Source: Nocardia sp. CY41 (lineage in GTDB: Bacteria > Actinomycetota > Actinomycetes > Mycobacteriales > Mycobacteriaceae). From it: a DNA stretch of 64,000 nucleotides. This document shows, piece after piece, positions 8,061-19,642 of this stretch. The position numbers were made by a program, and so were the translations under genes. Where the stretch lies: NCBI RefSeq assembly GCF_009829325.1, contig NZ_VUOS01000007.1, positions 1 to 64,000 on the forward strand, given 5' to 3'. The notes beneath the pieces were generated by a model, which was given only the letters and a program-made list of their open reading frames with translations, searched no databases and was not told where the DNA came from. Within the stretch, counting starts at the first letter, position 1. The number at the start of each line of letters is the position of its first letter.

Positions 8061-8987
8061 TCATGTACCGCTCATGTCCGGGTCGATTCGGCGTAACGCG
8101 GAGGCCAACCAATCGCTCTCACGGTGCTCGGGCGGCATCGCAGCCAGCCCGTATGTCGCCTCCGCGACTGCTTCGGTCGTGCGCCCCAGCAGAGCCAGCA
8201 CACCTCCGCGTTGTACTGCCCCGAATCCGGTGCTCCACCAATACATCGACGCGGGGGGTTCGATGCCGTCCGCCGCTTCCGTCGCTGCGTCGGCCATGGT
8301 CAGCGCGCGCTGTGCTCCGCGCCGCTCCCCATGTGCCGCCAGCAACTCCGCTCGCCGCATTCGCCCGTAGGCGCTGACGATGGGGTGTGCGTCCCGGATC
8401 GCCAGAGCGGCGTCCGATAGGGCGACCACCTCGCTGTAATTCCCGGCGCTAACAGTCACGTAGCCGAGAAAGCCCAGGCTGTGCGCAAGCCGGTCCGGGT
8501 CTCGGGACTCCTTTGCCAGGCTTACCGCCGTGCCGACGCTACGCCGCGCGGCAACATCGGCTCCGATCGCGTGCTCGGGCCATCCCCGGTACTGCGTGAC
8601 CTCCGACGCGAGAGACGTCGCCTCGGCCTTCGCTGTGCGCGCTTCGCGGGCGAATGCTTCGGTCATGGCAGCCAGGCCCCGAACTGTGGGAAGCACCGCC
8701 ACAGCCCCGGCCGCATCCTCGACGCGCCGCGTAGCCGCCAACATGACTGCCACGTCGGACAGGGCGGTGGGGTCGACACTTGCCGGCGTCCGCGCCACTG
8801 CCGTGAGTCGCTCCACGTCCGCGCCCAGCACTCTTTCGTAGGCGGCGGACACTCCGGCAGGCACCGGACGCCGGCCGGTCTCGATCAACGACAAGTAAGC
8901 CTTGCTGTAGTAACTCCGCGCGGCCATCGCGCGCAGCGAGATTCCCGCCGCCTCCCGAGCGGCACGCAGGAGCGCACCCGGTTCCAT
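8061..8987 (-). CDS. XRE-family regulator with TPR-like C-terminus
   Basis: The product is 308 residues from ATG 8987. The N-terminal Cro/C1 HTH (LLRAAREAAGISLRAMAAR ... KAYLSLIETGRRPVP) occupies residues 5-60. The rest is Ala-rich paired helices (LAHSLGFLGYVTVSAGNYSEV, AYGRMRRAELLAAHGE) typical of TPR sensor domains. Such proteins act as cytosolic DNA-binding regulators and sometimes respond to peptides or small molecules. It differs in sequence from the regulators at 2912 and 51719, so it is not a recent copy. No target site is evident. Confidence 0.82.
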   Translation of the reverse strand: MEPGALLRAAREAAGISLRAMAARSYYSKAYLSLIETGRRPVPAGVSAAYERVLGADVERLTAVARTPASVDPTALSDVAVMLAATRRVEDAAGAVAVLPTVRGLAAMTEAFAREARTAKAEATSLASEVTQYRGWPEHAIGADVAARRSVGTAVSLAKESRDPDRLAHSLGFLGYVTVSAGNYSEVVALSDAALAIRDAHPIVSAYGRMRRAELLAAHGERRGAQRALTMADAATEAADGIEPPASMYWWSTGFGAVQRGGVLALLGRTTEAVAEATYGLAAMPPEHRESDWLASALRRIDPDMSGT

Positions 8988-9534: not shown

Positions 9535-9596
9535 TGTCAGCGGACATGTCAGGCCGGTGTCAGGCCGGTATCAGCCCGGTTGGCGACAGTGCTCGT
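9535..9596 (+). promoter_or_regulatory. SARP-type promoter of the exporter operon
   Basis: TGTCAG occurs at 9535, 9547 and 9558 and TATCAG at 9569, giving steps of 12, 11 and 11 bp. The last three are heptamers separated by CCGG, the geometry known for SARP/AfsR activator sites. A -10-like GACAGT lies at 9585-9590, about nine bases after the last heptamer. The GTG start is at 9597, which implies a leaderless mRNA. The same layout recurs at 15290-15351. The candidate activator is the BTAD protein at 12048-15212. Confidence 0.75.
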
Positions 9597-10541
9597 GTGA
9601 ACAACACAGCAATTGCAGCTTCCGGGCTGCGGAAGGCATACGGGGACAGAACGATCCTCGATGGCATTGATCTGACCATCGGTGCCGGGACGATTTTCGC
9701 TCTGCTCGGTCCGAACGGGGCAGGTAAGACGACGACGGTGAACGTGCTGACCACGCTACTGAAGGTGGATGGCGGCACGGCGCGCGTGGCCGGGCACGAT
9801 ATCGCGACCGAGCCCGACGCGGTCCGCGCGGCGATCGGGGTCACCGGCCAGTTCGCGGCGGTGGACGACCTGCTGACCGGGGAAGAGAACCTGCGGTTGA
9901 TGGCGGATCTGCACCATCTGCGGGCCGACGAGAGCAAGCGGGTGATCGCCGATTTGCTGGACCGGTTCGATCTGGTCGACGCGGCGCGAAAGCAGGCGTC
10001 GTCCTATTCCGGGGGCATGCGCCGGAAACTGGATCTGGCGATGACACTGGTCACCAAACCGGAGATCATCTTCCTGGACGAGCCGACCACCGGACTGGAT
10101 CCGCGCAGCCGCCGCACCATGTGGGAAATCGTGCGGGAACTGACGGCAGGCGGTGTGACGATCTTCCTCACCACCCAATACCTCGAAGAAGCCGATCAGC
10201 TCGCCGACCGGATCGCGGTGCTCGACCAGGGCCGCATCGTCGGCGAAGGCACGCCCGACGACCTCAAGCGCCGAGTACCCGGCAGCCACATCCGGCTCCG
10301 GTTCGCGGGCATCACGGAACTGGACGCGGCGGCGCGCATCCTGGCCGCCGCCACCCGCGACGACGAGGCCCTGACCCTGCGGGTCCCGGGCGACGGCGGG
10401 ACGAAATCACTGCGGGACCTGCTGAATCGGCTCGCCGAGCACTCGGTGGACGCCGACGAGGTGTCCGTCCACACACCCGACCTCGATGATGTCTTCTTCG
10501 CCCTGACCGGTCACGCCACCACGGAGGCTGTCGCACAATGA
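9597..10541 (+). CDS. DrrA-type ABC exporter ATP-binding subunit
   Basis: The product is 314 residues from GTG 9597 (VNNTAIAASGLRKAYG). ATG/GTG codons further upstream fall inside the activator repeats. It shows Walker A GPNGAGKTT, a signature variant YSGGMRRKLDLAM, Walker B IIFLDEPTTGLDP and the switch segment LTTQYLEEADQLADRI. The C-terminal extension ends DLDDVFFALTGH, characteristic of the daunorubicin-resistance family. It energises efflux of a lipophilic compound, substrate unknown, with the permease that overlaps it by four bases. The promoter repeats point to control by the neighbouring BTAD regulator. Confidence 0.93.
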   Translation: MNNTAIAASGLRKAYGDRTILDGIDLTIGAGTIFALLGPNGAGKTTTVNVLTTLLKVDGGTARVAGHDIATEPDAVRAAIGVTGQFAAVDDLLTGEENLRLMADLHHLRADESKRVIADLLDRFDLVDAARKQASSYSGGMRRKLDLAMTLVTKPEIIFLDEPTTGLDPRSRRTMWEIVRELTAGGVTIFLTTQYLEEADQLADRIAVLDQGRIVGEGTPDDLKRRVPGSHIRLRFAGITELDAAARILAAATRDDEALTLRVPGDGGTKSLRDLLNRLAEHSVDADEVSVHTPDLDDVFFALTGHATTEAVAQ

Positions 10542-11299
10542 GCACCATTCCCGCACCGCTGGCCGATTCGTCGATCATGCTGCGGCGCAACTTCAAGCAC
10601 ATCGCCCGGACGCCGGTCACGATCTTCAACGCGGCGCTGATGCCGGTGGTGATGATGTTGATCTTCGTGTACGTCTTCGGGAACGCGTTCGATGTCGGCG
10701 AACAGTACATCGATTACGCGACGCCGGGCATGATCCTGCTGGCCATCAGCTATGGATTGTCGGGCACCGCGGTCTCGGTGAGCTCCGACATGGCGAAGGG
10801 CGTCATCAACCGGTTCAAGGTCATGAGCGTCTCCCGCGGCGCGGTGCTGACCGGCCACGTCGCCGCCACCGTAGTGACCAACGTGGTGGCCATCGCGGCC
10901 GTGCTCGGTGTGGCCTTCGCGCTGGGATTCCGATCGCCCGCGACCGCGCTGCACTGGCTCGGCGCGATCGGCGTCATGGCGGCGACCTCGTTCGCGGCCG
11001 CCTGGCTCACGGTCGCGCTGGGCATGGCCGCGAAGACTCCGGAATCCGCGGGTATGACCGTGGTGCCGCTGATCATGCTGCCGTTCGTCAGCAGCGCGAT
11101 CGTGCCCGCCGACCAGATGGGACCGGGTATCCGGCAGTTCGCGCAGTATCAGCCGTTCACGCCGATCATCGAAGCCTTGCGCGGGTTTCTCGGTGGCCAC
11201 CCGTCCGGCGGCTACACCGCCGCCGCGCTCGCCTGGTGCGCCGGATTCGCCCTCGTCGGATACCTGTGGTCGAGAGCCACGTTCGACAAGCGCGTGTAG
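10538..11299 (+). CDS. DrrB-type ABC exporter permease
   Basis: The product is 253 residues. ATG 10538 overlaps the ATPase stop as ATGA, so the two are translationally coupled. It has six hydrophobic segments (for example TIFNAALMPVVMMLIFVYVF, MILLAISYGLSGTAVSV, VTNVVAIAAVLGVAFALGF and IMLPFVSSAIVPADQM), matching ABC-2 type permeases. The segment before the last helix (FTPIIEALRGFLGG) is typical of the family. It forms the membrane channel of the exporter. Confidence 0.92.
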   Translation: MSTIPAPLADSSIMLRRNFKHIARTPVTIFNAALMPVVMMLIFVYVFGNAFDVGEQYIDYATPGMILLAISYGLSGTAVSVSSDMAKGVINRFKVMSVSRGAVLTGHVAATVVTNVVAIAAVLGVAFALGFRSPATALHWLGAIGVMAATSFAAAWLTVALGMAAKTPESAGMTVVPLIMLPFVSSAIVPADQMGPGIRQFAQYQPFTPIIEALRGFLGGHPSGGYTAAALAWCAGFALVGYLWSRATFDKRV

Positions 11300-11336
11300 T
11301 CACGCGCATCGCATCCATTTACCGAAGGAGACAGCC

Positions 11337-11981
11337 ATGCCCACATTCGAGACACCGGACCCGATCACCGTCGCCGTCGACGTGCTCTCCGGAAGCGTCA
11401 CCGTGATCGCCTCGGACCGTGCCGACACCGTCGTCGAAGTCCGGCCTGCCGATGCGGCCAAACGGGGTGACGTGCGCGCCGCCGAGCAGACCCGGGTCGA
11501 TTTCCGCGAAGGCACGCTGACCGTGCGAACGTCCAAGGACTGGCGCACCTATACCCCGTTCGGCGGTAACCCGTCCATCGAGGTGACCATCGAGGTGCCC
11601 ACCGGCTCCCGGCTGAAGGGCACCGCCGCCGTTGGCCGGTTGCTGGGCTCGGGCGAACTCGGCGAGTGTGATCTGCGGATGTCCGCCGGGGACATCACCG
11701 TCGAGCGCCCGCGCGGCTCGGTGACCGCGAAAACCGCCAAAGGCGACATCCACATCGGCGAAGCATCCCGGGGCGTGCTCCGGCTGGAAACCTCCATGGG
11801 CGAGCTGCGGGTCGGGATCAGCCCGGGCAGCGCGGCATGGCTGGAGACCAACGCCCAGCACGGCACCGTGCAGAACCAGGTGCGACCGATCGGCCGGACG
11901 GAGGACAACGAGGACGTCGTGCGGGTCTACGCGCGCAACTCCTACGGCAACATCATCATCCGGCACGCCACCGCCGCCTAG
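11337..11981 (+). CDS. DUF4097 beta-strand repeat protein
   Basis: The product is 214 residues from ATG 11337, with GAAGGAG seven bases upstream. It has repeated short beta strands with a GxIxV/GDIxI pattern (GSVTVIASD, AGDITVERPRGS, KGDIHIGEAS, YGNIIIRH), the DUF4097 fold. There is no signal peptide, so it is probably cytosolic or peripheral. It lies 37 bases after the permease in the same direction and very likely in the same transcript. DUF4097 proteins often accompany DrrAB-type transporters in actinobacteria, but their role is unknown. Confidence 0.85.
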   Translation: MPTFETPDPITVAVDVLSGSVTVIASDRADTVVEVRPADAAKRGDVRAAEQTRVDFREGTLTVRTSKDWRTYTPFGGNPSIEVTIEVPTGSRLKGTAAVGRLLGSGELGECDLRMSAGDITVERPRGSVTAKTAKGDIHIGEASRGVLRLETSMGELRVGISPGSAAWLETNAQHGTVQNQVRPIGRTEDNEDVVRVYARNSYGNIIIRHATAA

Positions 11982-12047
11982 CGCACCCAGCCGCCGGCAC
12001 ATTCCCAACGGCGTCGTGCACCGCAGTGTGGCCGGCTTCCGCCACGA

Positions 12048-15000
12048 TCAAGAAAGGAGCGTCGTCTCGACCAGTTCACGCCAGCTCGCCTGCGCACCCT
12101 CCCTCGTCGCCTCGGTGAATCGTGCCTCACCGAGGCGACGTCGTGCTGTCTGCTCGATCCGGCCCACATCCGGTTGGGCACGATCGGGCAGTCCGCGCAC
12201 TCGGGCACTCGCCGCGAGCAGACGCGCCGCCTGCTCGTCCTGGTCGTCGCGCAGCGCCAGATCCGCGACCCCGACGAGCACCTGGGCGACCAGGGGCGAA
12301 TACCCCGTGGCGGATGCCGCCCGGAAGGCCGCGGCTCGTTGTTCGCGGGCTTCGTCGAGATCGTCCGCGAGGTAGCCGAGCAGGTCGTGTGTCACCGCTT
12401 GGATGTAACTCTGCTCCGCATCACCGCCGAGCAGGGTTGTCGCGAGGTCGATCTGCCGGTACGCCTGCTCGGTGTCGCCGCTCCACCGGGCCAGCTCCGC
12501 TTTCGTCAGGGCGAGTGTGGCCAGTGCGTTCGGCCAGGCGGACCGGTCCGCGTACCGCTGCGCCTCGGCCATGGCGGCCGCGCTCGCTTCGGCATCACCG
12601 AGCAGCCAGTACAGCTGAGCCTGCCGCGCCCGGATCAGGAAGACGTCCTCGATCGCACCGACCTCGGTGACCACCCCGATCGCCTGGTCGAGATGTTCGC
12701 ACGCGCCGGCGAACGCACCGCGCATGGCGATTCGATTCGCCACCTCGGTGAGCGCGAACGAAATCCCCCAGCGCTCGCCGATCGCCCGGAACTCGGCGAG
12801 CGCCGTCTCGAGATACTCGTCCGCCTCCCGTCCCTCTTGGCCGAGCGCGATCCGTGCCTTGCCCAGTTGGAGCCGGGCCAGCGCCCGCACCCAGGGGTCG
12901 TCGTCGGTGAGCAGTGGCTCGAAGGCGGGCAGCAACGCGTCCGGACCCTCCAGCATGCGTTCCATCGCGACGACGAACCCCAGCAGGGGGTACCGGCTTT
13001 CACTGCGCCGGCTCAACCGGTATGCCTTGTGGATCCATTCCGCGACTTGCTGTTCGTCATTCGGCCCCGAGACCAGGAAATGCACGACCAGCCCGTACAC
13101 CCTGGCCCGGATCTCGTCGTCCACTTCGCCGGGCAGGTCGGCGGCCGCGGTGATCAGCTCCATGCCCTCGGCCTTGTGCCCGCTGAGCCACCAGTACCAG
13201 CCCGCGGCCGCCGCCAGCCGCGTCGCCCCGGGCGCGTCGCCGGCCGTAAGGGCGCCGCGCATCGCGACAGCGATGTTGTCGTGTTCGGCCTCGAGCGTGG
13301 CCAGCCACTCCAACTGGTCGGCGCGGCGCAGGCGCGGCTCCGCGGCGTCGGCGAGTTCGGTGAAATAGGCGAGATGCGCCCGGCGCGCCTGCTCGGATTC
13401 CCCCGCTTCCACGAGCCGGTCCAGGGCGTACTGCTTGATCGTGTCGAGCATCCGGAAGCGCGGCCCGCTGGCCCCGGCGGTGAGCAGCAGCGATTTCTCG
13501 GTCAGCGCGGTCAGCAGCTCGAGCACTTCCCACTGCTCTACCGCCGCGTTCTTTCCGTCCCCTTCGGGTCCGATCCCCACGCAGACCTGCTCGGCCGCGT
13601 CCAGGCTCGCGCCGCCGGAAAACACCGCGAGCCTGCGCAGGACCATCCGTTCCGCGTCGGTGAGCAGCTCCCAGCTCCAGTCGACGACCGCGCGCAATGT
13701 CCGGTGCTGCGGGATCGCGGTACGGCTGCCGCCGGTCAGCAAACGGAAACGATCGTCGAGGCGGTTGGCGAGCTGATCGAGGGACATGGTGCGCAGCCTG
13801 GCCGCGGCCAGTTCGATCGCCAGCGGGATTCCGTCGAGCGCCCGGCAGACGCGAGCCATGGTCGACAGTGTGCGGGCATCGGCCGCGAGATCCTTGCGCA
13901 CCGCGCCGGCCCGGTCCCGCAACAGCTGAACCGCCGGAGAGGACTCGATCTCGCCGGGACTCGCGTCCTCCGTGGGCAACGCCAGTGGCTCGACCTGCCA
14001 TAACGCCTCACCCGTGATGCCGAGCGGTTCCCTGCTCGTCGCGAGGATCCGCAGCCGCCGGCATTCCCCGAGCACCCGGTGGGCGAATGCCGCGGCGGCC
14101 TCGATCACGTGCTCGCAGTTGTCCAGGATCAGCAGGGTTTCGCGCTCGCGGATCGCGGCGACGAGGCGGTCCATCGGTTCGGCGTTCGGCGCGCCGCCGA
14201 GCAGCGCGTCCCGGAGGCCGAGCGCGGCGAGCGCCGATTGCGCCACGTCGCCAGTCGCGCCGACCGACGCCAGTTCCACCAGCCAGGCCCCGTCCGGGAG
14301 GTCGTCGAGCATGGTGCGCGCGGTTTCCAGGGCCAGCCTGGTTTTTCCCGAGCCACCGGGCCCGGTCAGCGTGGTGAGCCGATGGTCGGCGATGAGTTCG
14401 CGTACCGCGGCGATGTCGGCGTATTTGCCCACATATCTGGTCAACTCGGCCCGCAGGTTCGTCTTCGGGTCGGTCTTCTCCGCTCGCACTTCGCCGCGTA
14501 GCAGCGCGACGTGCAGAGCGGACAGTTCGGGGGAGGGATCCACGCCCAGCGTGTCGGCGAGTGCCTCCCGTGCGCGCTGGTACGCGACCAGCGCCTCGGC
14601 GCCACGACCTGCGGCGGCGAGCGCGCGCATCAGCGCGGCGACGAGCCGTTCCCGCACCGGATGCCGGGCCACCAGTTCGGTCAGCTCGGCGACCAGCTCC
14701 GTGCCCCGGCCGAGACGGATCTCCGCTTCGTACAGATCTTCCATGGCGGCCAGGCGCAGCCCCTCGAGCCGGGTGATCACCGCGTCGAACGCCGCGCTGT
14801 CGGACAGGCCGATGTCCTGCATCGGCGCCCCGCGCCACAGGTCGAGAGCTTCGCGCAGCAGTGCGGCCCGATGCGCGTCGTCACCGCCGCGGGCCTGGTC
14901 GAGAAGCTGTTCGAAACGCACGGCGTCGACGGCGCGGGGTTGCACCGCCAGCCGGTACCCGCCCGCCTGCCCGTCCAGCGACCCATCGGGCAGCACTCTT

Positions 15001-15212
15001 CGCAGGCGGGAGACCAGTGCCTGCAGGGCGTTCGCCGTGTCGGCGGGCGGCTGTTCGCCCCAAATCCGATCGACCAGCGTCATTTTCGGGACCGCGCGAT
15101 CGGGTTCGAGCGCGAGGGCGATCAACAGTGCCCGTAGCCGAGCGCCTGGCACCTCGATCGATCCGCCGTCATCCAGTCGGATCTCGAGCGGTCCAAGCAT
15201 CCCGATCAGCAC
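12048..15212 (-). CDS. AfsR/SARP-type regulator with BTAD, NB-ARC-like ATPase and TPR region
   Basis: The product is 1054 residues, with GTG 15212 (VLIGMLGPLEI) chosen because the family starts one strand before the winged helix. Residues 1-90 are an OmpR-like DNA-binding domain. Residues 95-240 are the BTAD domain. The P-loop TGPGGSGKTRL is at about 283-293, and LLILDNCEHV is a Walker B-like segment. A C-terminal half of helical TPR-like repeats follows. It is a cytosolic STAND-type activator, probably switched by nucleotide and an unknown ligand. It is convergent with the exporter operon and divergent from the ferredoxin-P450 operon. Both promoters carry 11-bp direct repeats suited to a BTAD regulator. 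Confidence 0.93.
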   Translation of the reverse strand: MLIGMLGPLEIRLDDGGSIEVPGARLRALLIALALEPDRAVPKMTLVDRIWGEQPPADTANALQALVSRLRRVLPDGSLDGQAGGYRLAVQPRAVDAVRFEQLLDQARGGDDAHRAALLREALDLWRGAPMQDIGLSDSAAFDAVITRLEGLRLAAMEDLYEAEIRLGRGTELVAELTELVARHPVRERLVAALMRALAAAGRGAEALVAYQRAREALADTLGVDPSPELSALHVALLRGEVRAEKTDPKTNLRAELTRYVGKYADIAAVRELIADHRLTTLTGPGGSGKTRLALETARTMLDDLPDGAWLVELASVGATGDVAQSALAALGLRDALLGGAPNAEPMDRLVAAIRERETLLILDNCEHVIEAAAAFAHRVLGECRRLRILATSREPLGITGEALWQVEPLALPTEDASPGEIESSPAVQLLRDRAGAVRKDLAADARTLSTMARVCRALDGIPLAIELAAARLRTMSLDQLANRLDDRFRLLTGGSRTAIPQHRTLRAVVDWSWELLTDAERMVLRRLAVFSGGASLDAAEQVCVGIGPEGDGKNAAVEQWEVLELLTALTEKSLLLTAGASGPRFRMLDTIKQYALDRLVEAGESEQARRAHLAYFTELADAAEPRLRRADQLEWLATLEAEHDNIAVAMRGALTAGDAPGATRLAAAAGWYWWLSGHKAEGMELITAAADLPGEVDDEIRARVYGLVVHFLVSGPNDEQQVAEWIHKAYRLSRRSESRYPLLGFVVAMERMLEGPDALLPAFEPLLTDDDPWVRALARLQLGKARIALGQEGREADEYLETALAEFRAIGERWGISFALTEVANRIAMRGAFAGACEHLDQAIGVVTEVGAIEDVFLIRARQAQLYWLLGDAEASAAAMAEAQRYADRSAWPNALATLALTKAELARWSGDTEQAYRQIDLATTLLGGDAEQSYIQAVTHDLLGYLADDLDEAREQRAAAFRAASATGYSPLVAQVLVGVADLALRDDQDEQAARLLAASARVRGLPDRAQPDVGRIEQTARRRLGEARFTEATREGAQASWRELVETTLLS

Positions 15213-15289
15213 CGGACCATTCTGCCGTGGACGATCGGCGGTCGGCGTCGCCACCCGTCCCCCCGGTGACAACCGCTTCGACGGGCCCG

Positions 15290-15351
15290 TGTCAGTGGAC
15301 GTGTCAGGCCGGTGTCAGTCCGGTATCAGCCTGGCCGGCGACAGTGTTCGG
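15290..15351 (+). promoter_or_regulatory. SARP-type promoter of the ferredoxin-P450 operon
   Basis: TGTCAG is at 15290, 15302 and 15313 and TATCAG at 15324 (steps 12, 11, 11). GACAGT is at 15340-15345 and the GTG at 15352. Every spacing equals that at 9535-9597. Similarity continues into the following coding sequence, so the two sites are homologous copies and not convergent motifs. Confidence 0.75.
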
Positions 15352-15477
15352 GTGAACAGTTCAGCAATCGCCTCGGACCGGCGAAAGGCGTACGCGGACA
15401 GGATGATCCTCGCGCCGCACGCGGACGCACTCGGATACGCCGCGCGTTCCCACCCGGTCGCCTGGGCGGAGGGGTAA
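15352..15477 (+). CDS. 41-codon leader ORF, remnant of the exporter ATPase 5' end
   Basis: GTG 15352 begins VNSSAIASDRRKAYADRMI, which matches the exporter ATPase start (VNNTAIAASGLRKAYGDRTI) apart from a small gap. It then diverges and ends at TAA 15475-15477. The GGAGGGG just before the stop is also the ribosome site of the ferredoxin gene at 15481, so translating this leader could be coupled to the ferredoxin. I read it as the debris carried along when the promoter was copied. Whether the peptide matters is unknown. Confidence 0.55.
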   Translation: MNSSAIASDRRKAYADRMILAPHADALGYAARSHPVAWAEG

Positions 15478-15480
15478 CCG

Positions 15481-15698
15481 ATGGAACTCAGGATGGATCG
15501 GGAGCGCTGCATCGGCGCCGGTATGTGCGTGCTGACCGCCCCCGGAGTATTCGACCAGGACACCGAGGACGGCCGGTGGTGCCGCTGGACTCAACACCCG
15601 CGCCGGAGTGGGCGGCGGCCGTCCGTGCGGCCGTCCAGGTGTGCCCGTCCGGCGCGATCACCATCGTCGAGCAATCACCACGAGAGGAAAACCGATGA
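15481..15698 (+). pseudogene. [3Fe-4S] ferredoxin, one frameshift
   Basis: ATG 15481 lies behind GGAGGGG. The first part has RCIGAGMCVLTAPGVFDQD with two cluster cysteines. The reading frame changes near 15574-15578 and continues VVPLDSTPAPEW to VQVCPSGAITIVE with the third ligand Cys-Pro, stopping at 15698. One missing base in GGCCGGTGG would restore a 72-residue ferredoxin of the kind that feeds electrons to bacterial P450s. Its stop overlaps the P450 start as ATGA. Left unrepaired, the product lacks its last cluster ligand. Confidence 0.8.
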
Positions 15699-16921
15699 GC
15701 CGACCAGTTCCGATCCCGCACGGCCTTCCCCTGGAGCGCGACGCGGGTCCGTTCGACCCGCCCCGCGAGATCACTCGGCTGCGCGAGGCTCGCCCGGTCA
15801 GTCCGATGATCTTCCCCGACGGGCACGAGGGCTGGCTCGTCACCGGCTACGACGCGGTCCGCAGGCTCATGGCCGACACCCGGTTCAGTTCCCGCCAGGA
15901 CATCGGCATCGTCCACGTGCCGTACGAGACGCCCGGCATGCCCGTCGCCACCGAGCCGTCCCCGCAGACGCCCGGCTTGTTCATCGCCATGGACCCGCCC
16001 GACCACACGCGGCTGCGGCGCAAGCTCATCGGCGCCTTCACCGTCAAGCGCATGAAGCAGCTCGAAGAGCACATCATCGACATCACCGAGCGGCAACTGG
16101 ACGAGATGGCGCGCCTGGCCCCGCCGGTCGACCTGGTCCAGGAGTTCGCCCTGCCGGTGCCCTCGCTGGTGATCTGCGAACTGCTCGGTGTTCCCTACGC
16201 GGACCGGGCCACGTTCCAGATCAACACCGCCAAGTTCTTGGTCAAGGATCAGTCGCTCGACGAGAAGATGGCCGCGTACGGCGCTATGACCACCTACCTG
16301 GCCCAACTGGTCACGGCCAAGCGCGCCGAACCCGGCGAGGACATCCTGTCCGACCTGGCTCGCCACGAAGACCTCACCATCGAGGAGCTGACCGGCATCG
16401 CCTTCCTGCTGCTGCTCGCCGGCCACGAGACCACCGCCAACATGCTCGCACTGGGCACGTTCGCGCTCTTGGAGCATCCCGAGCAATCGGCCGAACTGCG
16501 CGCCGACCCGGGGCTGATCCCCGACGCCGTCGAGGAGCTCATGCGCTACCTGTCCGTGGCCGACATCTTCTACCGCTACGCCACGGACGACATCGAACTC
16601 GGCGGTGAAACGATCGGCAAGGGGTCGACCGTCGTCGTCTCGTTGCTGGCCGCCAACCACGACCCCCAGCGCTTCGACGACCCCGACACCCTGGATATCC
16701 ATCGCAAGGCACGTGGTCATCTGTCCTTCGGCCACGGCGTCCACCAATGCCTCGGCCAGCAACTGGCCCGCATCGAGATGCGCGCCGGTTTCGCCGGACT
16801 GCTGCGCCGCTTCCCCACCCTCGAGCTCGCCATCCCCGCCGGTGAGGTGAGGCTCAGGACCGACATGAATATCTACGGCGTCCACGAATTGCCGGTCACC
16901 TGGACGGAATCCGGCGGGTAA
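15695..16921 (+). CDS. Cytochrome P450
   Basis: The product is 408 residues from ATG 15695, coupled to the ferredoxin. It is a soluble bacterial class I P450. The I-helix oxygen-binding motif is AGHETTAN, the ExxR-region is near DAVEELMRYLS, and the heme-binding loop is FGHGVHQCLGQQLAR with the thiolate Cys. The N-terminus is PHGLPLERDAGPFDPP, typical of actinomycete CYP105/CYP107-like enzymes. The substrate is unknown. Co-control with an efflux pump by a SARP promoter suggests modification of the same compound, perhaps detoxification. This is inference. Confidence 0.93.
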   Translation: MSRPVPIPHGLPLERDAGPFDPPREITRLREARPVSPMIFPDGHEGWLVTGYDAVRRLMADTRFSSRQDIGIVHVPYETPGMPVATEPSPQTPGLFIAMDPPDHTRLRRKLIGAFTVKRMKQLEEHIIDITERQLDEMARLAPPVDLVQEFALPVPSLVICELLGVPYADRATFQINTAKFLVKDQSLDEKMAAYGAMTTYLAQLVTAKRAEPGEDILSDLARHEDLTIEELTGIAFLLLLAGHETTANMLALGTFALLEHPEQSAELRADPGLIPDAVEELMRYLSVADIFYRYATDDIELGGETIGKGSTVVVSLLAANHDPQRFDDPDTLDIHRKARGHLSFGHGVHQCLGQQLARIEMRAGFAGLLRRFPTLELAIPAGEVRLRTDMNIYGVHELPVTWTESGG

Positions 16922-17785: not shown

Positions 17786-19642
17786 TCACCACTGGATGTC
17801 CGCGGCCGTGTTCAACGGAGCGGCGACTTCTTCCGGCGCCAATTGCAGATCGGCGTCCCGTAGCGCTTGCGGGAAATGGAAGCGGGCGCGCTGCTCGATC
17901 TCGGTCAACGGGACTTGGAAGACGCGGAACTCGTCGAGATCGAGTGCCTCCAGCTGATCCAGGTTCTGGCTCAGCAGGAAGCCGCGGGCTTTCAGTTCGC
18001 CGTTGTCCTCGAACGCGATGACCTTCCAGAACTCGCGCGGGATCCGGACCTGCCGGAATTCCCGGTCGTCCGCGGTGAAGACCGGGCCGCCGAACGCGCT
18101 GACCTTGAGGTCGTCGACGGTGGCGTCGGCGAAGACGGCGTCTTCGAGCCGTCCCCAGAGCCCGTCGCGCATGCTCTGGTTGAAGTCGTCCATCTGCGGG
18201 GTGATGTTGGTGTAGAAGAACGAGTCCTTGTTGGCTTTCGCCGCCTCGGGCATACTGCCCCAGAGCAGATCCGCGCGGCGCGCGAGGTGGCCGCGATCGA
18301 GCCGGTTGTCGCGGTACAGCTCGTTGCCGACCTGGGCGTCCGCGTCGAGCCGCGGATCCTTGACGAAGTCGATCTTCTTCCGCGAGAGCTTCTTGATCGA
18401 GGCTCCGTCGATGTTCCAGGCCACCCAGATGGCGAAGCGGCGCGAGCGGCGCATCGCGAGGGAGAAGTGCGTGTAGTGCAGGACGTCCGCGCCGTCGAGT
18501 GCGGTCGCCACGTCGGGGCGGACCTCGGCGTCCACCTCGGGCAGCGGAATCGGCGACGCGAGGAAATGCGGATCGTATCCGGCGACGACCGCGACTTCTT
18601 CCGGGGCGGGCGGGGTCAACGTGATGCCGAGCTTCTCGAACACCGATTGCGGCAGGCAGGCCAGCGCGTGCTCGTCGGTGTCCGAGCCCGTTTCCCCGGC
18701 GAAATGCAATCCGGCCAGGACGGTGCTCGTGGTGCCGTCGGGGAGCGTGAACAACCACGCCGATCCGGAATCGCCGCCGCTGCTGATCTCGCCGTCGGAT
18801 GGCGGATGGCCGGGATCCGGTCCGATCTCGAAGCCGCCGATGCTCTTGCTGCCCACGCCGCGGTAGTCGATCTTGGCGACCACGTCGACGCGCCGCACGA
18901 TGCCGTGGGTGACCGCGGTGGTCCGGCCGCTCTTGATCACCTTGTCGCCCAGTTCGGGGTCACCGAGGCGGTCCGGGACGACGCCGAGCCCGCTGACTTC
19001 GCCACTGAAATGGCGGTTCTCGATAACGGCGACGGCGCAGTCGCCCGCCGCGCCGAGATGGGACCTGACGAGCTTGCCGAGCCGATTGCGGTCGATGCGA
19101 TTGTCGTCGCGCGGCCCCGGCTGCACGACGTCGTCGCCGAGCCTGCCCGCCGAGGTGTGCAGGACGTGCCAATTGCTCAGTACGTACGGGGTCCCGTCGT
19201 CCCGGTCGTAGACCACGCAACCGATCGTTCCGGCTGTGCCGGAGGGGTGGGCGACGCTGATTCCGGGAACGATCGGATCCAGGCGCGTCTTGCGCTCCGG
19301 CGCCGCCGCTTCGTCGACCAGCCGGAAGGCGGGCTCGAATTTGCGCTGCAGGACATCGGTCGGCACCTCGATCCCGTCGACGGTGACGGTCTCCGGAATC
19401 GTGGACGTGCCGAGCGCTTCGAGTTCCTCCGGCTCGGACACCTTCTCGTTCACGGTGAACTGCACCGCGATCTCACCGGTCGGCTTTCCGTCGACTTGCT
19501 TGTAGCCGACGCCGATCGAGGAGATATTGGGATCTTCGAGGAAATTCTCCCCTTTGCTGCGGATGAATTTGCGCAGTGCGGCGCGAAGATCGTCTTTCCG
19601 GGTAGGCGTCCGGCGGGCGGGTGAGCTCTTTTTCGCAGGCAT
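17786..19642 (-). CDS. Trypsin-like protease fused to a NUC1-type nonspecific endonuclease
   Basis: The product is 618 residues from ATG 19642. Residues 1-125 are an Arg/Lys-rich start and a short beta domain. Residues 130-345 are a chymotrypsin-fold serine protease with His159 (SNWHVL), Asp201 (GDCAVAV) and Ser292 (GGDSGSAW), a complete triad. Residues 385-600 are a DNA/RNA nonspecific endonuclease with DRGH at 449-452 and metal-ligand Asn479 in YTNITPQ. There is no Sec signal peptide. Both active sites look intact. The combination suggests a proteolytically controlled nuclease effector, but no partner gene is adjacent. The function is inferred from domains only. Confidence 0.88.
   Translation of the reverse strand: MPAKKSSPARRTPTRKDDLRAALRKFIRSKGENFLEDPNISSIGVGYKQVDGKPTGEIAVQFTVNEKVSEPEELEALGTSTIPETVTVDGIEVPTDVLQRKFEPAFRLVDEAAAPERKTRLDPIVPGISVAHPSGTAGTIGCVVYDRDDGTPYVLSNWHVLHTSAGRLGDDVVQPGPRDDNRIDRNRLGKLVRSHLGAAGDCAVAVIENRHFSGEVSGLGVVPDRLGDPELGDKVIKSGRTTAVTHGIVRRVDVVAKIDYRGVGSKSIGGFEIGPDPGHPPSDGEISSGGDSGSAWLFTLPDGTTSTVLAGLHFAGETGSDTDEHALACLPQSVFEKLGITLTPPAPEEVAVVAGYDPHFLASPIPLPEVDAEVRPDVATALDGADVLHYTHFSLAMRRSRRFAIWVAWNIDGASIKKLSRKKIDFVKDPRLDADAQVGNELYRDNRLDRGHLARRADLLWGSMPEAAKANKDSFFYTNITPQMDDFNQSMRDGLWGRLEDAVFADATVDDLKVSAFGGPVFTADDREFRQVRIPREFWKVIAFEDNGELKARGFLLSQNLDQLEALDLDEFRVFQVPLTEIEQRARFHFPQALRDADLQLAPEEVAAPLNTAADIQW

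What the first reader, a model, noticed from the sequence alone, without database searches (positions are those of the whole stretch)
9535..15351. Two promoters with identical SARP architecture around one BTAD regulator
Four TGTCAG-type repeats with steps 12, 11, 11, a GACAGT -10 and a leaderless GTG occur upstream of the exporter and of the ferredoxin-P450 genes, with every distance equal. SARP activators bind heptamer repeats at an 11-bp period close to the -10. The AfsR-like protein encoded between the two sites is the natural activator. The cassette couples efflux with oxidation, a plausible self-contained response to a lipophilic compound.
Basis: partly seen in the sequence, partly recalled or inferred. 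Interest (0 to 1): 0.78.

Follow-up and report, generated by a model that had tools for sequence, protein, structure and literature searches.

The report
Promoters copied with their start codons
In this Nocardia-type genome the same four-repeat promoter, with the same start codon and a related run of first codons, stands before an exporter gene and before an oxidation operon (the second likely a truncated copy of the first), and the SARP-family regulator encoded between them is predicted to switch on both, along with matching promoters elsewhere in the genus.

Summary
In detail: at both sites four YRTCAG repeats (steps 12, 11, 11), a GACAGT and a GTG stand at equal distances; the perfect four-repeat pattern occurs three times in the 7.86-Mb genome, its reversed control never. 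With GTG as +1 the inner repeats lie at -40/-30 and -29/-19, the published AfsR register. Two corrections. Site 2 matches because it is most likely a truncated copy of the exporter promoter plus about 20 codons; its GTG opens a 41-codon ORF, not ferredoxin. And the cassette is not self-contained: a third array precedes an unlinked hydrolase/small-protein pair. Across 148 genomes of the genus, arrays track the BTAD gene (121 of 124 with it, 2 of 24 without, both before exporter relics); the small target gene is in 17 of 24 BTAD-bearing and 0 of 24 BTAD-less genomes. In relatives, DrrA-like first codons precede GtrA-like, DUF4097, ferredoxin, hydrolase and small proteins. Best reading: a large SARP activates a genus-wide regulon of start-codon-bearing promoters that grew by copying. 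Binding, transcription starts and inducer are untested.

The parts
9535..9574 (+). Site 1: four YRTCAG repeats (9535, 9547, 9558, 9569), predicted SARP operator
   Evidence: conserved before the exporter in relatives
9585..9590 (+). Predicted -10 (GACAGT) of site 1, at -12/-7 if the GTG is +1
   Evidence: A-11, G-8 and T-7 invariant in 71 arrays selected on repeats alone
9597..10541 (+). DrrA-type ABC exporter ATPase, predicted leaderless GTG start
   Evidence: TIGR01188 331.3 bits against cut-off 312.45; geometry
10538..11299 (+). ABC-2 type permease
   Evidence: PF01061 78.8 bits against cut-off 26.9
11337..11981 (+). DUF4097 protein; in many relatives it lies instead behind the second array
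   Evidence: PF13349
12048..15212 (-). Large SARP-type regulator (winged helix, BTAD, ATPase region), predicted activator
   Evidence: PF00486, PF03704, PF13401 above cut-off; AfsR structure 8hvr matches residues 3-240, E 2.9e-32
15290..15329 (+). Site 2: four repeats (15290, 15302, 15313, 15324), likely duplicate of site 1
15340..15345 (+). Predicted -10 (GACAGT) of site 2
15352..15477 (+). 41-codon ORF, likely remnant of a copied DrrA start
15481..15698 (+). Ferredoxin gene; its reading frame changes inside the gene in this assembly
   Evidence: PF13370 25.5 bits against cut-off 24.5 on the 5' part; frames read
15695..16921 (+). Cytochrome P450
   Evidence: PF00067 105.6 bits against cut-off 22.8

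Best explanation
The two sites share one SARP-type promoter and gene start, site 2 most likely being a truncated copy of site 1, and the large SARP encoded between them (12048-15212) likely binds the repeats and activates both the exporter operon and the ferredoxin-P450 operon. Shown: the architecture; the similarity of the two sites through about 20 exporter codons; conservation of the arrays across the genus; co-occurrence of arrays and target genes with the BTAD gene. Inferred from AfsR (PMC10936776): SARP protomers on the repeats at -40/-30 and -29/-19 bridge to RNA polymerase and sigma region 4 and so compensate for the poor -10 and missing -35; the two outer repeats may load more protomers. 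Inferred from geometry: transcription starts at or within a base or two of the start codon, so the exporter mRNA is leaderless. Because promoter and start codon form one compact piece, copying about 130 bp would wire a new gene into the regulon. At site 2 the copied GTG survives as a 41-codon ORF before ferredoxin; in relatives it is fused in frame to the new gene or lost. The regulon (exporter, DUF4097, ferredoxin-P450, hydrolase, small protein; in relatives also GtrA-like and serine hydrolase) suggests a response to a lipophilic or antibiotic-like compound; the signal is unknown.
For: Register identical to the AfsR box and same TCAG position as in the afsS -35 region. SARP-domain match to AfsR 8hvr E 2.9e-32; DNA-contact residues W74, P79, S91, R92, R94 kept and K95 is R (read from the alignment). 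Promoter before the exporter in 49 of 50 loci with a BTAD homologue (>=55% identity) beside it and in 2 of 30 others. Second array in 36 of 36 Nocardia-type loci that have a DUF4097 or ferredoxin/P450 block behind the BTAD gene and enough flank, two of them inverted together with the block. Genus profile: arrays in 121 of 124 BTAD-bearing and 2 of 24 BTAD-less genomes, both before exporter remnants. Small target gene in 17 of 24 BTAD-bearing and 0 of 24 BTAD-less genomes. Hydrolase genes >=70% identical: array in 13 of 14 fetched from BTAD-bearing and 0 of 3 from BTAD-less genomes. DrrA-like codons fused to GtrA-like proteins (30-31 codons, 70-74% identity) in L122 and L173.
Against: No binding, expression or 5'-end data. 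Related genomes are not independent, so the Fisher values overstate the evidence. AfsR contact residues S46, Q48, R87 and T88 differ here, and the base at -38 contacted by R92 in AfsR is G or A here, not T, so sequence recognition must differ. The exact pattern is rare outside the genus (16 of 293 other class-level genomes). L049 has a BTAD homologue but neither array by the search used, although a P450 (56% identity) lies behind its BTAD gene; L047 has an array without a BTAD gene in view. One hydrolase in G112 and one in G094 lack an array although the genome has the regulator. Three of the 13 hydrolase arrays were read by eye as TGACAG variants.
Confidence: 0.8

Rival explanations
1. The arrays are bound by another regulator (a paralogous large SARP or a PhoP-like factor), and the BTAD gene is only a passenger of the cassette.
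For: Several genomes carry further large SARPs of about 40% identity; the AfsR site is also recognised by PhoP (PMC10972967, passage).
Against: Unlinked targets and arrays disappear together with this particular BTAD gene: small gene 0 of 24, hydrolase arrays 0 of 5 fetched in BTAD-less genomes, although BTAD-less genomes G034, G038, G041, G064, G067 and G097 still have weaker large-SARP matches at E 1e-108 to 1e-157.
Confidence: 0.1
2. The 41-codon ORF at site 2 is a functional leader peptide that controls ferredoxin-P450 translation, not a remnant.
For: It ends 3 nt before the ferredoxin ATG and overlaps its ribosome-binding site; separate ORFs of 23-44 codons exist at the same place in L004-L007.
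Against: Length and sequence after the first codons vary; in 15 of 34 loci with a + strand second array the position has no start codon, and in 12 the ORF is fused to the next gene.
Confidence: 0.1
3. The arrays are operators for repression, not activation.
For: Four repeats close to the -10 could also occlude polymerase; the sign of regulation is not testable by sequence.
Against: SARPs are described as activators and the register equals that of the AfsR activation complex; the -10 is poor and no -35 is needed only if an activator is present.
Confidence: 0.06
4. The two arrays arose independently by convergence on the same operator and not by duplication.
For: Operators can converge, and upstream of the first repeat there is no clear similarity.
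Against: Similarity continues through about 60 bp of exporter coding sequence, and relatives have in-frame fusions of DrrA codons to other genes. For the unlinked hydrolase arrays convergence stays possible, since only some of their starts look DrrA-like (for example L202, L167).
Confidence: 0.04

Closest known systems
AfsR and the afsS promoter of Streptomyces coelicolor (PMC10936776; passages and section 7 read)
   Same: Large SARP with an ATPase region; operator of 11-bp direct repeats at -40/-30 and -29/-19; TCAG at -37/-34; poor -10 of the form NANNGT
   Different: Here four repeats with one 12-bp step, a predicted leaderless start, a target set of exporter, P450 and hydrolase genes, and NCBIfam AfsR score 142.5 against cut-off 1430
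PimR (SARP-LAL) and the pimM operator of Streptomyces natalensis (PMC5930380; passages read)
   Same: Direct heptamer repeats with 4-bp spacers bound cooperatively
   Different: Three repeats of CGGCAAG plus a doublet in nature, not overlapping the -35; an engineered fourth repeat did not help much there, while four are the natural number here
DnrI, ActII-ORF4 and other cluster-situated SARPs (PMC10972967; passages read)
   Same: Two or three heptameric repeats near the -10 of target genes
   Different: Those sites serve antibiotic clusters; here a genus-wide set of small operons with no biosynthetic cluster in view
NocP of Nocardia sp. (mentioned in PMC10972967, passage)
   Same: A SARP in the same genus
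   Different: Described there as regulating biosynthesis of one thiopeptide (nocathiacin I); not this protein or promoter as far as the passage shows

Membership tests
SARP family (large, AfsR-like) | N-terminal winged-helix DNA-binding domain followed by BTAD | tested here: met
   PF00486 32.0 bits (cut-off 26.2) and PF03704 124.6 bits (cut-off 22.1); AfsR 8hvr residues 3-240, E 2.9e-32
SARP family (large, AfsR-like) | ATPase (NOD) region after the SARP domain | tested here: met
   PF13401 27.8 bits against cut-off 27, a narrow pass; alignment to full AfsR over residues 3-596
SARP family (large, AfsR-like) | C-terminal TPR region | tested here: inconclusive
   No TPR family among the Pfam matches at E 0.001; no structure was predicted
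SARP family (large, AfsR-like) | Direct repeats at 11-bp period next to the -10 of target genes | tested here: met
   one step of 12 bp
SARP family (large, AfsR-like) | Binding of the repeats and transcription activation | not testable with these tools
   needs footprinting and transcription assays
AfsR (NF053617 equivalog) | Score above the curated cut-off | tested here: not met
   142.5 bits against 1430
DrrA subfamily exporter ATPase (TIGR01188) | Score above the curated cut-off | tested here: met
   331.3 bits against 312.45; substrate unknown
DrrB family permease (TIGR01247, TIGR00025) | Score above the curated cut-off | tested here: not met
   35.4 against 223.05 and 66.7 against 146.9; an ABC-2 permease by Pfam
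Leaderless genes | Transcription start at the start codon | not testable with these tools
   only the geometry (GACAGT at -12/-7 from the GTG) supports it

The most novel reading that the evidence does not exclude
A SARP promoter that carries its own start codon behaves as a transplantable on-switch: copies of about 130 bp (operator, -10, start codon, first codons) have repeatedly landed before unrelated Nocardia genes, building a genus-wide regulon and leaving DrrA-derived peptides fused to the new proteins, so that the growth of a regulatory network can be read from N-terminal scars.
Probability: 0.6. Interest if true: 0.78.

Novelty: new variant of a known kind. Interest (0 to 1): 0.64.

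Why it matters
SARPs are known mainly as activators inside Streptomyces antibiotic clusters. Here one large SARP appears to run a genus-wide set of export, oxidation and hydrolysis genes through four-repeat, start-codon-bearing promoters, which gives a clean system for asking what large SARPs sense. It is also a readable case of how a bacterial regulon grows: a leaderless promoter can be copied with its start codon and would work in front of almost any gene, and the first codons left behind identify the donor. The same scars mean that N-termini of some Nocardia proteins can look foreign to their families.

Tried and rejected
Considered and rejected: chance origin of the arrays (three perfect hits, no reversed-pattern hits; no reversed-pattern hit in any of 148 genus genomes, or 296 class-level genomes). 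Considered and rejected: the site-2 GTG as ferredoxin start (ferredoxin starts at 15481; one search shows where the family begins in fused relatives). Considered and rejected: arrays confined to the cassette (C59 array). Exceptions followed up: G094, first scored BTAD-less by my E < 1e-200 criterion (chosen after seeing the gap), has an 80%-identical SARP-domain piece at a contig end and was moved to the BTAD-bearing group; the other 24 BTAD-less genomes were not each checked for such splits. G088 has three TGACAG-variant matches. G092 and G144 had no match, but variant repeats were read by eye before their hydrolase. G022 and G097 carry arrays before exporter remnants. Class-wide search: 19 of 296 genomes matched, 3 of them of this genus; of 18 listed matches outside the genus I examined 11 loci, of which 8 stand before DrrA or DUF4097 relatives and 3 before nothing recognised. 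Led nowhere: literature searches for this array or regulon (listings, plus passages of three papers) gave nothing on it. The small target protein has 1,392 relatives at E <= 1e-5, the named ones among the 120 listed mostly 'hypothetical protein', no NCBIfam family on 135 residues and no Pfam family on an 85-residue piece of a relative. Structure prediction was not run, because solved AfsR structures were matched by sequence.

Sampling told. One search counts all 80 loci (9 with under 4.5 kb of right flank). examines 49 sequences with a BTAD of >=55% identity (48 loci and the window): 34 with a + strand second array, 12 without, 3 with too little flank. For some searches I chose 60 regions from the listed rows (that list was cut off), skipping many rows that were visibly the second array of one cassette. 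In one search the query proteins for hydrolase, small, GtrA-like and serine-hydrolase genes came from these loci or their relatives. The 24 BTAD-bearing genomes were picked by me, not at random. The 20 hydrolase regions were chosen by me: after reclassification 5 are from BTAD-less genomes (0 arrays) and 15 from BTAD-bearing ones (10 arrays by search, 3 more by eye, 2 none); other hydrolase genes of both groups were not fetched.
Full report
What is there. Site 1 (9535-9574) and site 2 (15290-15329) each hold four YRTCAG repeats with steps 12, 11, 11, followed after 10 nt by GACAGT and then by a GTG at 9597 and 15352. Between them lie a DrrA-type ATPase, an ABC-2 permease and a DUF4097 protein on the + strand and a 1054-aa BTAD regulator on the - strand; after site 2 come a ferredoxin and a P450. 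In the 7.86-Mb assembly the four-repeat pattern has three perfect matches, these two and one on another contig (C59:54932); the reversed pattern has none. The third array precedes a predicted leaderless alpha/beta hydrolase (275 aa), with a protein of an unnamed actinobacterial family (135 aa as read) next on the same strand.

Why the two sites are identical. Similarity begins at about the first repeat and continues past the GTG through about 60 bp of the exporter's coding sequence. Leaving out the first 9 coding nt, the downstream match scores 41, above the maximum of 29 in 9,790 windows of the same 64 kb. At protein level VNNTAIAASGLRKAYGDRTIL (DrrA) matches VNSSAIAS-DRRKAYADRMIL (site 2). 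Site 2 is therefore most simply a truncated copy of the exporter promoter and gene start; the direction of copying is inferred from the truncation. Its GTG opens a 41-codon ORF that stops at 15477; ferredoxin starts at 15481 with its own GGAGG.

Fit to SARP promoters. Taking the GTG as +1, the two promoter-proximal 11-mers occupy -40/-30 and -29/-19. PMC10936776 (passages and section 7 read) places the AfsR box of afsS at -40 to -19, centred at -29.5, with a poor -35 TTCAGC at -38/-33 and a -10 CACTGT; TCAG thus stands at -37/-34 in both. Among 71 arrays from 81 sequences (80 loci and the window) selected on the repeats alone, A-11, G-8 and T-7 are invariant although not selected for. The regulator's residues 3-240 align to the AfsR SARP structure (8hvr, E 2.9e-32). 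Read from that alignment, AfsR contact residues W74, P79, S91, R92 and R94 are kept and K95 is R; S46, Q48, R87 and T88 differ, and the base at -38 is G or A here, not T. The 12 residues compared fall into seven similar versions among 49 sequences of >=55% identity. The protein works like a SARP but is not an AfsR orthologue by NCBIfam.

Conservation and neighbourhood. A scan of named genome contigs returned 80 loci. The promoter (at least two repeats plus -10) stands before the exporter in 49 of 50 loci with a BTAD homologue of >=55% identity beside it and in 2 of 30 others; one of the two, L016, ends at the exporter gene, the other is L047 (Streptomyces). Behind the BTAD gene, 34 of 49 sequences (window included) have a + strand array, 12 have none and 3 have too little flank. 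Of the 12, L035 and L038 carry the target block inverted with its array; L003, L009 and L029 lack the block; 7 are other genera, among them L049, which has a P450 there without an array. So 36 of 36 Nocardia-type loci with the block and enough flank have an array.

Co-occurrence. In 148 genomes of the genus the pattern of three repeats plus -10 occurs in 123 and its reversed control in none. A BTAD orthologue (best E < 1e-200, a cut-off chosen at the visible gap) is in 123, or 124 after a piece was found at a contig end in G094. Arrays: 121 of 124 with the gene, 2 of 24 without. Of the three misses G088 has TGACAG-variant matches; G092 and G144 have variants by eye before their hydrolase. The two array-only genomes, G022 and G097, carry the array before remnants of the exporter's 5' end. 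Fisher's test gives 6e-21, uncorrected for relatedness. Apart from the cassette: the small target gene is in 17 of 24 BTAD-bearing and 0 of 24 BTAD-less genomes; hydrolase genes of >=70% identity have an array in 13 of 14 fetched from BTAD-bearing genomes (three of the 13 by eye) and in 0 of 3 from BTAD-less ones (p 0.006). In G005 and G083 the hydrolase lies about 2 kb from the BTAD gene itself.

Copying with the start codon. Of 63 arrays in 61 regions (60 chosen, one from this genome), the first recognised coding match downstream was the small protein 23 times, hydrolase 14, DrrA 9, DUF4097 9, serine hydrolase 3, ferredoxin 3, GtrA-like 1, none 1 (at a contig end). Two of the nine DrrA matches are only 30-31 codons long and run on into a GtrA-like membrane protein (L122, L173), which also occurs with shorter DrrA-like starts (L136 and six loci). 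Among the 34 + strand second arrays, the ORF at +1 runs into DUF4097 in 8 (L014, L015, L018-L021, L030, L048), into ferredoxin in 4 (L022, L024, L041, L078), is separate in 7 (window, L004-L007 with 23-44 codons, L037 and L044), and has no start codon in 15. L161 and L172 have the small protein beginning VNSTAI, and a hydrolase in G094 begins ATGAACAACACAGCGATTGCC, like DrrA (L202). This is what repeated copying of a promoter that contains its start codon would leave.

Mechanism, with status. Shown: anatomy, similarity of the two gene starts, conservation, co-occurrence. Inferred from AfsR: binding of SARP protomers to the repeats, contact with sigma region 4 and polymerase, activation from a poor -10. 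Inferred from geometry: leaderless transcripts. Unknown: the inducing signal, the exporter's substrate and the role of the two outer repeats; the natural SARP sites named in the passages read have two or three heptamers (PMC10972967, PMC5930380). The gene set (efflux, P450 oxidation, hydrolysis) makes a response to a lipophilic or antibiotic-like compound plausible, no more.

Spread beyond the genus. The relaxed pattern matched 19 of 296 class-level genomes, 3 of this genus. Eight of the 11 outside loci examined (18 listed) stand before DrrA or DUF4097 relatives, and exporter loci of Haloactinopolyspora, Catenulispora and Streptomyces (L054, L056) show repeats at the same steps by eye. The switch therefore looks older than the genus, with the regulon expanded in Nocardia.

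Literature. Searches combining SARP with leaderless, Nocardia, BTAD, efflux, regulon or AfsR listed no description of this array or regulon; only open-licence papers are held.

Noticed in passing
15481-15698: The ferredoxin reading frame changes within the gene in this assembly (true break or sequence error); relatives such as L041 have an uninterrupted gene.
   Followed up: partly
17786-19642 (-): 618-aa protein with a C-terminal DNA/RNA non-specific endonuclease domain (PF01223) and a long N-terminal part without a Pfam match.
   Followed up: no
8061-8987 (-): NsdA-family regulator (NF053720, 97.7 bits against cut-off 75) just upstream of the cassette.
   Followed up: no
L069, L072-L077, upstream of the exporter match: Microbacterium relatives have CGACAG-like repeats at about 11-bp period before the exporter, with a distant BTAD homologue (about 37-39% identity) nearby: perhaps the same switch with another recognition sequence.
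   Followed up: no
L025, L033, L036, L040, L043 near 7900 (-); L039 near 6230 (-): A third, divergent three-repeat array faces the exporter array and precedes a GtrA-like membrane protein that begins V-N-[ST]-T-A.
   Followed up: partly
G000:C59:55927-56181 (within L087): Small protein next to the hydrolase belongs to a large actinobacterial family (1,392 relatives at E <= 1e-5) without an NCBIfam model; its presence follows the BTAD gene in the genomes tested.
   Followed up: partly
L203 (G022) and L200 (G097): Arrays before decayed 5' ends of the exporter gene in genomes without the BTAD gene: apparent relics of a lost cassette.
   Followed up: yes
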